NCBI GenBank assembly: GCA_018857735.1
Contig: JABMCL010001016.1
Coordinates: 1 to 64,000 of the forward strand
Reading direction: 5' to 3'
Origin: Alviniconcha marisindica
Taxonomy: Eukaryota > Mollusca > Gastropoda > Provannidae
DNA length: 64,000 bases
A program made the translations under genes and the position numbers. The notes below the pieces were generated by a model, which searched no databases, was not told the origin of the DNA, and saw only the letters and a program-made list of their open reading frames with translations. This document shows, piece by piece, positions 18,492 to 43,000 of the stretch (position 1 is the stretch's first letter; each line of letters opens with the position of its first letter).

Positions 18492-21400
18492 CTAGAGCTC
18501 GGCCTGCAGTTCTCTCTTCAGCTGCGCCACAGACTTTCTGACGTACACCCGCCCCCTGTCCCCCCACACAGCCTCCAGGGCCAGTTCCACCAGCATCAGC
18601 TCTTCCAACCGGCCCTCGGGCGGCTCCTTCAGCTTCCTCACACGCCGCCACTTGCGTCGCTCCCGCCTAGCCAGCGAGGAGCTTCCCGTTGACGCTCCAC
18701 TTTTCTTCCTCAGCACGGACAGCGGGTTTGGCCCTTTCAGTTTCTTCTTCTTGTGCAAGGGCAGCGCCTCGTCCACGGGCGCCAGACCCTCCTGCTCCAG
18801 AAGGGAGGGCAGCCTCTCGGTCTCATGCAGGGGCACCAGCCTCTCCTGGGCCACCACGCCAGCCGCCCCCTTGGACTCCTCCGACGCCTTCTCCAGGGTG
18901 ATGGCGTTGCCGTGGAGGTAGAGCAAGGGCAGGCCTGGTATTCGGCGGGCTTTGTTGGCCAGGGTACTGTGCTGCAAAGTGTCAGCAGGAAGAGTGAGAA
19001 AAGCATGGACCTATATGTATGTATAGGTCCATGGAGAAAACTACTCACCAGAACACAGCGTGAGAGAGAGAGAGAGAAAGAGAGAGAGAGAGAGCATAGT
19101 CAAATTTGTAAAATATCTGATGATGATGTGATGTCGTGTTTGCCTTTTAGAACAATTTTTTGGCAACTTTGGTAATAAGAAGGGAGAACAAAACTGGGCC
19201 ACAGCTGTCCCCTTGTTTGTGGCCTCGACTGCACATAAATTCTTCAGTCAGATCATCACCTACTCAAATTCTAGCCATAACAACTTTATACATACTTTTG
19301 ACTGCCACATATATATGTTTTGCCTCTGATACCACTTTTCTTAAGAATTAACAATAGAGCATTCCTATCAATTAAGTCAAATGCTTTCTCAAAAACCAAT
19401 AAAAAGAAACATATATAACTTCCCATAATTAAGGAGTTGTTTCTGTACCAAAGCTAAGAGCGTAAACACATGGTCAATTGTACTATAGCCTTGTCTGAAT
19501 CCAGCTTGTGCTTCATTTAACAATTTGTTATTTTCAGTCTATTGAGTGAGACACTTATTTAAAATATTTTTATATAATTTACCGCCCACATTTAGCAACG
19601 ATATTCCTCTATAATTATTATGGGAATTGATGCTACCCTTTCTGCAGTTATTGTTCTATGTAGCAACAAAGAACTATCTTACCTGTGTAGCAACAAAGAA
19701 CTACCTTACCTGTCTAGCAATAAAGAACTACCTTACCTGTGTAGCAATAAAGAACTGCCTTACCTGTGTAGCAATAAAGTCTTTAAAGAACTACCTTACC
19801 TGTGTAGCACTAAAGAACTGCCTTACCTGTGTAGCAATAAAGAACTGCCTTACCTGTGTAGCAATAAAGAACTGCCTTACCTGTGTAGCAATAAAGAACT
19901 ACCTTCCCCGTGTAGCAATAATAATAAAAACTGCCTTACCTGTGTAGCAATAAAGAACTGTCTCTTCTTTCCTTTCTTTTCTCTCTCAGTCTCTGACTGC
20001 TGTCTGGCGTAGTCGGGATGAGATCGTTTGGCTGTCTTTCGCAGACAGTCGACGGGGTCCACTCCATGGGTCAGGTGGGGGCAGGCAGCTACTTTGTACT
20101 CTCTCATCACCTTCAGAGGTCCATACAACAGCTTCCCTGCAGACAAACAGTGTACTCTGTTAAAGGGTACCCAAGACAGAGGAACACCACAGAATGACAT
20201 CCATGTTGTACAGATGGTGCTTACTTCCCAAGGGGCAATTACTGTATGAATGTAAATATAAAAGCTGAATAAAAACCTTTAAAAAAAAATCATCAAAGAA
20301 ATCCCAAGTCTGTCGGTCCTCCGATTGACAGAAATGGAATAAAAAATACTCTCATACTGTGTCATAGTCACATCAGTCTTTAAGTTTAATTTAAAAGTTT
20401 AAGTCAGTTTCTCATTTTCTGGTCCGGTTTCTTTAAAAAATGAGTTTAAAAGTCATGAAAACATGACCATCAACACTGTCATTTTGTGTTTAATGGTCTG
20501 TCTGAGACGTCATGAACACGGTCAGCACTTTGTCCGAATGTCTGGGGACATTGTATAATTAAGTACAACTGAATGCAAGGCGATGTGTTCAAAAACATGT
20601 TAGCATCACTCAGTACATGGGCCCAAGGTTGTAAGGCTTATGCAGAGTTCCCTCCCTCGGGCTACAGGACTTGAGCAAGTAGTAGTTTGGGTTTGTGACT
20701 GCTGTGTAATGGTCTCTGCTGTACGGGTTGACTGGGCGTAAAACACCAACTTACTTACTTACTCTGCTGTACGCCTTGCGGGATAAGGCTGTAAGGTTTA
20801 TGCAGAGTTCTCTCCCTCAGGCTACAGGACTTGAGCGAGACAGTGAGAGTTTGGGTTTGTGACTGCTGCGTAGTGGTCTCGGCTGTACGCCTTGCATGAT
20901 AAGGCTGTAAGGTTTATGCAGAGTTCTCTCCCTCAGGCTACATGACTTTCAAGAACGAGACAGTGAGAGTTTGGGTTTGTGACTGCTGTGTAGTAGTCTC
21001 TGCTGTACGCCTTGCAGGACTGTTTGTCATGATTATGCACATGCTTAGGGATTTAGTGTAAGGTTAGGTGCATTATTATTAATCTGATTAAGTGTGAAGT
21101 AGAGTTTCATACACAAGGTCAGGTTTCACGATGGTAAAGAAAAAGTATTTCCGTTTCTCATGGGTGAGACTGAGAGGGACTCAGGTCCAGAGAAAAACGA
21201 AGGGAAGCCTAAGGGGTCTAGAGACATAAGAAGACAGAAGGTTTAAGTGACTAAAACTCTAATTAATTACACAGAGACTACGAAGTGTAATACACACGCA
21301 GTAAATGAGCAGCACATAGATCTGCAGATCACATAATCATGCAAAAGAAAAATATTAAAGACAGAGCGTTTAGATTTTTTAGATTTATAAAGGAGTGGGA

Positions 21401-40000: not shown

Positions 40001-43000
40001 CTGTAACATTTTCTCAAACCTATCATCACCAATGTTCTGCGAAGAAGTCCATGTCAAAGCAGTCTGAGTTGACAAGATCTAGATTTGCCAGCACCAGGAA
40101 ATGTTTCGCTTATATTCTGGAACACCACCAAAGCCAACTGAAGAAAATGTAATCAAATCCTAAAAGCAGCACAAAATCAATGAAGCTGTGTGTATGTGTG
40201 TGTGAGTTGTGTGTGTGTGTGCGTTTGTGTGTGTGTGTGTGTGTTGCGTGTGTGTGTGCATGCATGTGTGCGTGTGTGTGTGAGTGTGTGTGTGTATGCA
40301 CATGTTTGCTGCCCTTTGCATCACACAAATTTCTGATCAAGGCATAAAAAAATGACACTGAGTGTTTGATCATCAAACAAGACATTCCTAGTGCAATTGT
40401 ACTGACACTTGGCAATAAAGTTGTGTTGTATTGTATCACTGACACTGTAAAATTCGGAACTCACTTTCCAGCGTCTGTCTCTTTGTAGATTCCCCCAGAG
40501 TTTGGACACAGCTCACAGTGCTGGGAACAGAAAAATGCAGATTAATGATCACAGACTAGGTGATCACTGCCAGGTGACTGACACAGCACAGACGGGCAGA
40601 CAGACTGACAGACAGACCTGGCTTCAGACTGACATAGCTGGAAGAGAGACACAAAGGCAAGGAGACAGACCAGGCAACAGACCGACATCAGAGCTGGAAG
40701 ACAGACACCCAGGCATGGAGACAGACCAGACTAGACAGACAGAGTAGAGATGAAAGACAGACACACTGGCAGGGAGACATACCAGACTACAGACCAACAC
40801 AGAAGAGCTGGAAGACAGACAAAGGCAGAGCTTGAAAACACGCAAGCAGACAGACCTGGCTACAGACAGACCAACAGTTAGAGCAGAGCTGGAAGATACA
40901 CAGACCATGACAGCAGCAGGACTGGAAGACAGACAGACAGACAGACAGACAGACAACACTACAGACCGGTAGAGCAATGCTGGAAGACAGACCAAGCTAC
41001 AGACTGGTAGCACAAAGCTGGCAGACAAAACTACAGACTGGTAATGAAAAGATGGAAGACAGACCAAGCTACAGAATGGTAATGAAAAGTTGGAAGACAC
41101 ACAAGCTACAGAGAACAGAACTGGAATACAGACCAGGCTACAGACTGGTAGCACAAAGCTTGCGGACAAAGCTACAGACTGGTAATGAAAAGTTGGAAGA
41201 CAGACCAGGCTACAGACTGAATGAGCAGAGCTGGAATACAAAGAGAACAAGAGCTCTACAAATTGACTGAGCAGAGCTGAAAAGATCACAGACAGGCAGC
41301 GACAGGAGCCAGACTGCACAGAGCCAAGCAGGAGACAGACTGACTGAGCAGAACTGGAAGACAGACTGACAGACAGACAGACAGGCAGGCAGGTAGTGAC
41401 AGGAGCCAGACTGCAGAGAGCCAAACAGGAGACAGACTGCCTGAGCAGAGCTAGAAGACAGACAGACAGACAGGCAGTGACAGGAACCAAAGTGCACAGA
41501 GCCAAGCAGGAGACAGACTGACTGAGCAGAGCTAGAAGACAGACAGACAGGCAGACAGACAGGCAGTGACAGGAGCCAGACTGCACAGAGCCAAGCAGGA
41601 GACACACTGACCGAGCAGAGCTAGAAGACAGGCAGGCAGACAGACAGACAGGCAGAGACAGGAGCCAAAGTGCACAGAGCCAAGCAGGGGACAGACTCAC
41701 CGAGCAGAGCTGGAAAACATACTGACAGACAGGTAGTGACAGGAGCCAGACAGCACAGAGCTAAGGAAGGGACAGACTGACCAAGCAGAGCTAGAAGACA
41801 GACAGGCAGACAGACAGACAGGCAGTGAGAGGAGCCAGACTGCACAGAGCCAAGCAGGAGACACACTGACCGAGCAGAGCTGGAAGACAGACTGACAGAC
41901 AGACAGACAGGCAGGCAGGTAGTGACAGGAGCCAGACCACAGAGAGCCAAGCAGGGGACATACTGACCAAGCAGAGCTGGAAGACACAAACAGACAGACA
42001 GACAGGCAGGTAGTAAGAGGAACCAGACTGCACAGAGCCAAGCAGGAGACTGACTGAGCAGAGCTGGAAGACAGACAGACAGGTAGTGACAGGAGCCATT
42101 AGCAGAGAGCCAAGCAGGGGACATACTGACCGGCACAACACCTGCTTTGCAGGCATCACAAAACCATGGCTCAGTACTGGCTGACGACTCCGTGCTAGCT
42201 AGTGATTGGTTGTCGCTGATACCATAGCAACCTGAAACAACCAAATATTTCACCACATCCTTAAAACAGGCCATTTAAACAGAATCTGCTATTTAAAAGC
42301 AAGCTTTATAATGGTCACCTTGAAGTTTCTTTCAGGACCGTCTTCTCACAAGAAGGGTCTCCAGTCATTGGAGTTGACACAAATTGCACACATGGAAGTG
42401 GAGGTGTGTTGGGGAGGGGGTGGGGGGAGGTGTCATCACTTGCATCCCTAACAGCTTCATTCAAGTATTAAATCTGCATGCATTTCATAGGCTTTTTGCC
42501 TGTAGAAGTATCTCAAAAATGAGTAAGAATCAAAAACAAGCAAACAAACAAACAAAAAACAGAAGAGAAGTTATGACTCATTTCATGAGAAAATATCTCA
42601 TTTACATTACACCTCCATTGCCAAAGTTACTGAACATTGCACAGTCAGTGTGCCATGACGGTGGTTCAGTCTAGGAGTCACACTCACATGTATTTGAGCG
42701 TATAGCTCTTTTGACAGTTGACAGTCCCTATGGACAAAACAGCTGGGACCATCAATGTGACTTCTTCCGGACAGAAACCTGCCTTTAAAAGAATCAACAC
42801 ACGATGGAGTTAATTAGCACTTGAAATCTGTAACAAGTACAACTACAAAGACCCGAGTTACCTACAGTAACTCTAGTAAGTAAGTAAACATGGTGCTTAA
42901 CATCCACAGAAACCATAAGGCTTATTAGGGACGGGTAGTAACTCTCACCTGCCATGTGTGTAAATACAAGGTACATAAACTTCACCAGAGGTACATCCTC

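What the first reader, a model, noticed from the sequence alone, without database searches (positions are those of the whole stretch)
19660..42231. Tandem arrays whose repeat unit contains the neighbouring exon's splice site, in two adjacent genes
At six junctions (UTP23 exon 2 donor; PHF14 exon 8, 10 and 19 donors; PHF14 exon 15 and 18 acceptors) the adjacent repeated sequence includes the functional splice site, and at four of them (UTP23 exon 2; PHF14 exons 10, 15 and 18) an exon segment as well. A seventh (exon 12 donor) is partial. The arrays are unrelated in sequence and length (27, 28, 37, 95, ~100 bp), so this is repeated creation of junction-spanning repeats, not one mobile family. 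Possible meanings: a local duplication process that starts at exon edges; selection holding arrays at exon borders; or tolerated or used splice-site banks. Some intron-gain models invoke AGGT-containing tandem duplications, but banks of up to ~49 splice sites are not something I can match to a described system.
Basis: partly seen in the sequence, partly recalled or inferred. Interest (0 to 1): 0.88.

Follow-up and report, generated by a model that had tools for sequence, protein, structure and literature searches.

The report
Duplicated splice-site banks in snail introns
In two neighbouring genes of a likely marine snail, seven of fifty exon edges, splice site included, are copied one to 46 times inside the adjoining intron; the copies are likely passive repeat DNA that is tolerated because the original site would still be used, an arrangement already described for the human gene ABCA7.

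Summary
In a protein-supported model of UTP23 and PHF14 (minus strand, 25 introns, 50 junctions), seven junction contexts have strong copies in their own intron (gapped scores 58-96); the best of 1,200 comparisons with other introns scored 26. There are 106 in-register copies, 1 to 46 per junction. The repeats carry 1-32 nt of exon, so they derive from the junctions.

The bolder readings are not established. Minisatellites cover 42% of these introns. Random placement predicts 2.5-4.0 junction-spanning arrays against 7 seen (P 0.009-0.09), in a window picked for this pattern. Splice dinucleotides are not consistently better kept than the rest of the unit. Each of the 101 copies keeping GT or AG would, if used, give a frameshift or premature stop, so these are not coding-isoform banks.

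A described equivalent exists: the human ABCA7 25-bp VNTR includes the exon 18 donor (12-427 units; PMC5954066, passages). Clustering and acceptor-side arrays are what differ. The genome-wide test could not run: the host-genome search did not answer in ten tries.

The parts
19659..19960 (-). 27-bp array over the UTP23 exon 2 donor (exon ends at 19940); 9 intronic donor copies, 8 with GT; unit = about 18-21 nt of exon tail (encoding FFIATQ) + GTAAGGCAG
41288..42131 (-). 89-bp array beginning at the PHF14 exon 8 donor (exon ends at 42131, exon part 1 nt); 9 in-register copies, 7 with GT
39611..39869 (-). Single 125-nt duplication over the PHF14 exon 10 donor (exon ends at 39838), carrying 32 nt of exon and about 90 nt of intron; one copy, GT kept
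37295..38206 (-). 30-bp array at the PHF14 exon 12 donor (exon ends at 38204, exon part 3 nt); 28 donor copies, all with GT
32815..34665 (-). 38-bp array over the PHF14 exon 15 acceptor (exon starts at 32824, exon part 10 nt); 46 acceptor copies, all with AG; 45 of 47 acceptors including the native one have a branch-point-like CTNAY motif within 40 nt upstream
30045..30905 (-). 95-bp array over the PHF14 exon 18 acceptor (exon starts at 30060, exon part 16-19 nt); 8 acceptor copies, all with AG
29359..29530 (-). 28-bp array over the PHF14 exon 19 donor (exon ends at 29508, exon part 23 nt); 5 donor copies, 3 with GT
18492..22092 (-). UTP23 coding region, 3 exons (22092-21876, 20136-19940, 18971-18492), open reading frame of 297 aa
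25040..48954 (-).
   Evidence: the frame from E5 to the stop was also asserted by the script

Best explanation
Seven exon-intron junctions of UTP23 and PHF14 are repeated inside the adjoining intron, and these repeats are most likely ordinary minisatellites whose founding tandem duplication happened to cross the junction. How it would work: in introns already dense with minisatellites, slippage or unequal exchange duplicates short segments (inferred). If the segment spans a donor, the new copy falls on the intron side of the old donor; if it spans an acceptor, upstream of the old one. The exon and its outermost site therefore stay unchanged, so the duplication escapes purifying selection and can expand freely (inferred). 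The predicted result is that the exon-adjacent site makes the normal mRNA while copies act as decoys, leaking at some low rate into frameshifted or prematurely stopped transcripts, as reported for ABCA7. Shown here: the copies, their exon content, their derivation from conserved exon ends, their unrelated units, and the frame consequences. Not shown: site usage, age, length variation.
For: 7 of 50 junctions, 0 of 1,200 controls at score >=36. The units share no sequence beyond GTCT-rich stretches in E8/E10. The repeats carry 1-32 nt of exon, and orthologous proteins align without a gap across six of the seven joins where the ortholog covers them; at E12, one of eight (the chiton P0024) lacks two residues just before the join. 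So the exon ends predate the arrays. Each array touches only one end of its intron, with 282-1029 nt to the other end. Minisatellites cover 42% of intron bases against 7.6% outside the two genes, and placing 27 arrays at random gives 2.5-4.0 junction-spanning ones. Splice dinucleotides depart from consensus at 0.056 against 0.053 for the whole unit in U2 and at 0.200 against 0.089 in E19, so no general conservation. Precedent with measured splicing: ABCA7.
Against: Seven is 1.7-2.8 times the expectation, and the tightest null gives P 0.009. In E12, E8, E15 and E18 the splice dinucleotide departs less than the unit average (0.017 against 0.080, 0.062 against 0.103, 0 against 0.018, 0 against 0.053), though 43-89% of columns do as well. 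Many copies score as well as the native site by a simple matrix: 7 of 9 in U2, 16 of 28 in E12, 44 of 46 in E15, 6 of 8 in E18, 1 of 1 in E10, 1 of 5 in E19 (E8 not rescored in register), so tolerance of so many strong decoys is itself unexplained. No RNA or reads were available.
Confidence: 0.75

Rival explanations
1. A mutational bias makes tandem duplications start at exon edges more often than elsewhere in introns, for example through replication or transcription stalling or microhomology there.
For: 7 observed against 2.5-4.0 expected; P(>=7) 0.0092 and 0.020 when exon parts up to 32 nt are allowed. 9 of 27 arrays have an edge within 25 nt of a junction against 5.7 expected, P 0.09; three non-spanning arrays end 4, 18 and 22 nt from a junction (E22 acceptor, E14 donor, E17 donor).
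Against: P rises to 0.06-0.09 when any exon part is allowed. The E10 duplication was added by hand because the junction search found it, and comparable two-copy repeats elsewhere in the introns were not sought; with a count of six P is 0.03-0.20. The window was chosen for the pattern. No genome-wide count.
Confidence: 0.14
2. The arrays are kept by selection as regulators: decoy sites divert a share of transcripts to nonsense-mediated decay or exon skipping, so that array length tunes UTP23 and PHF14 output.
For: 101 of 101 intact copies would give a frameshift or premature stop. Junction arrays hold 12.8 donor-like and 15.7 acceptor-like sites per kb, against 7.1 and 3.5 in introns outside arrays. 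In ABCA7, one-unit retention occurs, exon 19 skipping rises and expression falls with VNTR length (passages).
Against: Copy splice sites are not consistently better conserved than other columns. Frameshifts and stops are what use of most intronic sites would give anyway. In ABCA7 one-unit retention did not change with array length, and its authors do not attribute the expression fall to it. No RNA here.
Confidence: 0.07
3. Some or all of the arrays are assembly artefacts.
For: A frame break inside PHF14 exon 3/4 may be a base error. The E15 array is very uniform (mean departure 0.018). No reads were available.
Against: Copies differ by several substitutions and indels and by spacing, and seven unrelated units would all have to be artefacts.
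Confidence: 0.04

Closest known systems
Human ABCA7 intron 18 VNTR (PMC5954066; passages seen)
   Same: Minisatellite (25 bp, 12-427 units) directly beside an exon whose unit includes the functional donor GT. The second unit's donor is used in some transcripts, adding 25 nt and a frameshift; most like the E8 array, whose repeat starts at the last exon base.
   Different: Donor only and a single junction. Here there are seven junctions in two adjacent genes, two of them acceptors, with up to 32 nt of exon in the repeat.
Human IFI6 (6-16, G1P3) minisatellite donors (Turri et al. 1995: title seen in reference lists only; the paper is not held; one describing sentence seen in PMC4526556)
   Same: Minisatellite units at an exon end supply alternative splice donors.
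   Different: There, use of two downstream units gives encoded isoforms; here the intact copies disrupt the reading frame.
Internal tandem repeats at exon-intron boundaries in human segmental duplications (De Grassi and Ciccarelli 2009, PMC2812944; outline and passages)
   Same: Minisatellite expansion at exon-intron boundaries changing splicing: 27 intron modifications after manual inspection.
   Different: There, repeats in recent paralogs form novel introns; here the introns keep conserved exon joins and the repeats sit at one end.
Intron gain by tandem duplication of AGGT segments (Rogers model; PMC4974935 passages, which also describes four copies of a 24-bp segment across a fission-yeast intron)
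   Same: Tandem duplication of a segment holding AG-GT; the U2 unit has AG-GT at the exon end.
   Different: That model makes a new intron between copies. Here the far end of each intron lies 282-1029 nt beyond the array.

Membership tests
ABCA7-type junction minisatellite | The repeat unit includes the functional splice site and the array lies directly beside the exon | tested here: met
   7 of 50 junctions, controls at most 26 against 58-96; five donors and two acceptors. E10 is one extra copy only.
ABCA7-type junction minisatellite | Minisatellite-sized unit (about 10-100 bp) in a multi-copy array | tested here: met
   Six of seven: 27, 28, 30, 38, 89 and 95 bp with 5-46 copies. E10 fails (125 nt, one copy).
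ABCA7-type junction minisatellite | Copy sites used in some transcripts | not testable with these tools
   No RNA available.
ABCA7-type junction minisatellite | Length varies between individuals | not testable with these tools
   One haplotype only; the host genome search did not complete.
Intron gain by tandem duplication (Rogers model) | The intron lies between two copies, so both of its ends carry the repeat | tested here: not met
   In all seven introns the array touches one end and lies 282-1029 nt from the other.
Intron gain by tandem duplication (Rogers model) | The intron is absent from relatives | not tested
   Only proteins of relatives were available, no genomic sequence.
One mobile repeat family inserted at exon edges | Units related in sequence | tested here: not met
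   Of 21 unit pairs only E8/E10 reach a score of 24 (27, both GTCT-rich); no spanning control at or above 36 among 1,200.
Coding-isoform splice bank (IFI6-like) | Use of copies keeps the reading frame | tested here: not met
   0 of 101 copies with GT or AG reads to the native stop (94, 7 of E8).

The most novel reading that the evidence does not exclude
The introns of this snail lineage are in an ongoing burst of splice-site duplication that starts at exon edges, and selection prunes only the most dangerous decoy: in all three multi-copy donor arrays that have lost any GT, the copy nearest the exon is among the losses (U2 +32, E19 +28, E8 +72). The 46-acceptor bank before PHF14 exon 15 would then be a natural competition assay in which the last of 47 near-identical, branch-point-bearing acceptors must win.
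Probability: 0.12. Interest if true: 0.75.

Novelty: new variant of a known kind. Interest (0 to 1): 0.42.

Why it matters
If the arrays are passive, they show how freely a donor or acceptor can be multiplied beside a working exon, and they offer natural constructs for asking how the spliceosome picks one of many near-identical sites: 29 donors at exon 12 and 47 acceptors at exon 15, native site included. Arrays of this kind can also matter medically, as ABCA7 shows. If junction-spanning arrays prove commoner than repeat density predicts across the genome, that would point to a duplication bias at exon edges, which bears on intron growth and intron gain.

Tried and rejected
Own-genome control: the same genome search was sent ten times and never answered, so the genome-wide count was not done.

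Coding-isoform bank: rejected, 0 of 101 copies keep the frame to the native stop. first showed 3 open E8 copies; these were GTCT-microsatellite matches out of register and were dropped.

New-intron model: rejected for these seven by the far-end test.

Array first, exon boundary later: rejected because the orthologous proteins share the exon ends.

One mobile family: rejected.

Ratchet points (recursive splicing): considered because U2 units read as AG-GTAAGG after a pyrimidine-like stretch. That stretch is the exon tail encoding FFIATQ, conserved in Babylonia and Nucella, so coding explains it. Not tested further.

Selection on copy sites: no consistent signal (six arrays; E10 has one copy and was left out).

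Literature: ten searches. No acceptor-side array of this kind appeared in the listings shown, but only the listed titles and abstracts and passages of eight papers were seen. PMC3629103, tried as the source of the fission-yeast case, has none of the three terms. PMC6692358 and PMC3152781 (passages) were not precedents.
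Full report
GENES. UTP23 (3 coding exons, 297 aa) and PHF14 lie on the minus strand. Exon ends were set by splice dinucleotides, phase and an open frame. The UTP23 frame is fully open, as is PHF14 from E5 to its stop. 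Pfam finds Fcf1 in the first and PHD and zf-HC5HC2H domains in the second. The nearest named proteins are caenogastropod: PHF14 of Littorina saxatilis (81%) and Batillaria attramentaria (85% over 66% of the query), and UTP23 of Babylonia areolata (59%). A caenogastropod host is therefore likely but not named.

THE OBSERVATION. An ungapped scan of an earlier 48-junction model flagged six junctions well above the cross-intron maximum of 11; E8 scored only 10 there. That model still held a doubtful exon 3 and an earlier exon 6 start, both corrected. A gapped test on the corrected 50 junctions gave exactly seven spanning matches (58-96); 1,200 comparisons with other introns gave none above 26.

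COPIES. Besides the native sites there are 9 (U2), 9 (E8), 1 (E10), 28 (E12), 5 (E19), 46 (E15) and 8 (E18), 106 in all. The E8 figure comes, the rest. GT is gone in 1, 2, 0, 0 and 2 of the donor sets, AG in none of the acceptor sets. The matching limit was 3 mismatches in 13 or 14 bases (9 in 27 for E8), so badly decayed copies are not counted. By a matrix built from the other 20 donors and 23 acceptors of the two genes, many copies equal or exceed the native site. In E15, 45 of 47 acceptors including the native one have a branch-point-like CTNAY within 40 nt upstream.

DIRECTION. The repeats contain exon: 21-24 nt in U2, 32 in E10, 23 in E19, 16-19 in E18, 10 in E15, 3 in E12, 1 in E8. These exon ends are shared by orthologs. 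In UTP23, FFIATQ precedes the join in Babylonia and Nucella; P0004 to P0006 do not cover that side comparably. In PHF14 eight orthologs align without a gap at the six joins, except that the chiton P0024 lacks the two residues before the E12 join. The junction is thus the source and the array the derivative.

IS IT MORE THAN CHANCE? TRF minisatellites (period 15 or more, microsatellites removed) cover 42% of intron bases in the two genes, 3.4% of exon bases, 7.6% outside the two genes and 1.3% of 49000-64000. Each of 27 intronic arrays (26 from TRF plus the E10 duplication added by hand) was collapsed to one unit and its founding position randomised. The expected number spanning a junction was 4.0, 3.7, 2.9 or 2.5 under four versions, with P(>=7) 0.088, 0.059, 0.020 and 0.009, and P(>=6) 0.20, 0.14, 0.06 and 0.03. 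Adding E10 favours the observed side, because two-copy repeats elsewhere were not sought. Since the window was picked out for this pattern, I read this as at most a weak excess.

FUNCTION OF THE COPIES. If used, each of the 101 copies that keep GT or AG gives a frameshift or premature stop (94, excluding its E8 set; 7 of E8). This argues against isoform banks but is also what most intronic sites would do. Departure from consensus at the splice dinucleotide against the whole unit was 0.056/0.053 (U2), 0.017/0.080 (E12), 0.200/0.089 (E19), 0.062/0.103 (E8), 0/0.018 (E15) and 0/0.053 (E18). The share of columns doing at least as well was 63, 43, 82, 53, 89 and 78%. There is no consistent sign of selection. 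Junction arrays are denser in site-like motifs (12.8 donor-like and 15.7 acceptor-like per kb) than other arrays (5.6 and 4.1) or the rest of the introns (7.1 and 3.5), as expected if their unit contains one.

A LEAD. In the three multi-copy donor arrays with any lost GT, the copy nearest the exon is among the lost: U2 1 of 9, E19 2 of 5, E8 2 of 9. By my own arithmetic the joint chance is 1/9 x 2/5 x 2/9, about 0.01. It is post hoc, E12 (0 of 28 lost) is uninformative, and the U2 nearest copy is diverged overall, so edge decay explains it as well.

KNOWN SYSTEMS. ABCA7 intron 18 has a 25-bp VNTR that includes the exon 18 donor as its first two bases, 12-427 units, with detected use of the second unit's donor. 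In that study one-unit retention did not change with length, while exon 19 skipping rose and expression fell (PMC5954066, passages). IFI6 isoforms use downstream repeat units as donors (PMC4526556, passage). Human paralogs have repeats at exon-intron boundaries (PMC2812944, outline and passages). Donor arrays here are therefore new members of a known kind. The acceptor arrays and the number of junctions in two adjacent genes are the variant; I saw no acceptor equivalent in ten searches, which is weak evidence of absence.

VERDICT. Confirmed observation. The most likely cause is passive minisatellite growth from junction-spanning duplications (0.75), with an exon-edge bias as the main rival (0.14). 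The host genome could not be searched, so the deciding count remains open.

Noticed in passing
window 19908, 29480, 42059 (nearest copies to U2, E19 and E8; + coordinates of the base before the lost GT): The decoy donor nearest the exon has lost its GT in three of the four multi-copy donor arrays; the fourth (E12) has lost none of 28.
   Followed up: partly
window 47228-46946 (-): PHF14 exon 3/4 needs a frame change between its N-terminal and acidic halves: a base error, a variant or a tiny unmodelled intron.
   Followed up: no
window 27350-27497, 35138-35676, 31337-31713: Three further arrays stop 4, 18 and 22 nt from a junction (E22 acceptor, E14 donor, E17 donor) without including the site.
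   Followed up: partly
window 18972-48148 against 49000-64000: Minisatellites fill 42% of the introns of these two genes but 1.3% of 49000-64000.
   Followed up: no
window 3450-6052 (+): Broken open frames resembling a non-LTR retrotransposon, with CGDVETNPGP, a 2A-like motif (label recalled), near the start. No Pfam match at E 0.01 for the five pieces tested.
   Followed up: partly
window 55574-56125 (-): Exon of a bZIP transcription factor gene (bZIP_2, E 5.3e-10) upstream of PHF14.
   Followed up: partly
window 2640-3099 and 8604-8906: Two separate arrays about 5.5 kb apart share a ~91-bp unit, unlike the unrelated intronic arrays: a dispersed repeat family in this flank.
   Followed up: no
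window 13822-14749: A 56-bp unit repeated 16.6 times at 91% match outside the two genes.
   Followed up: no
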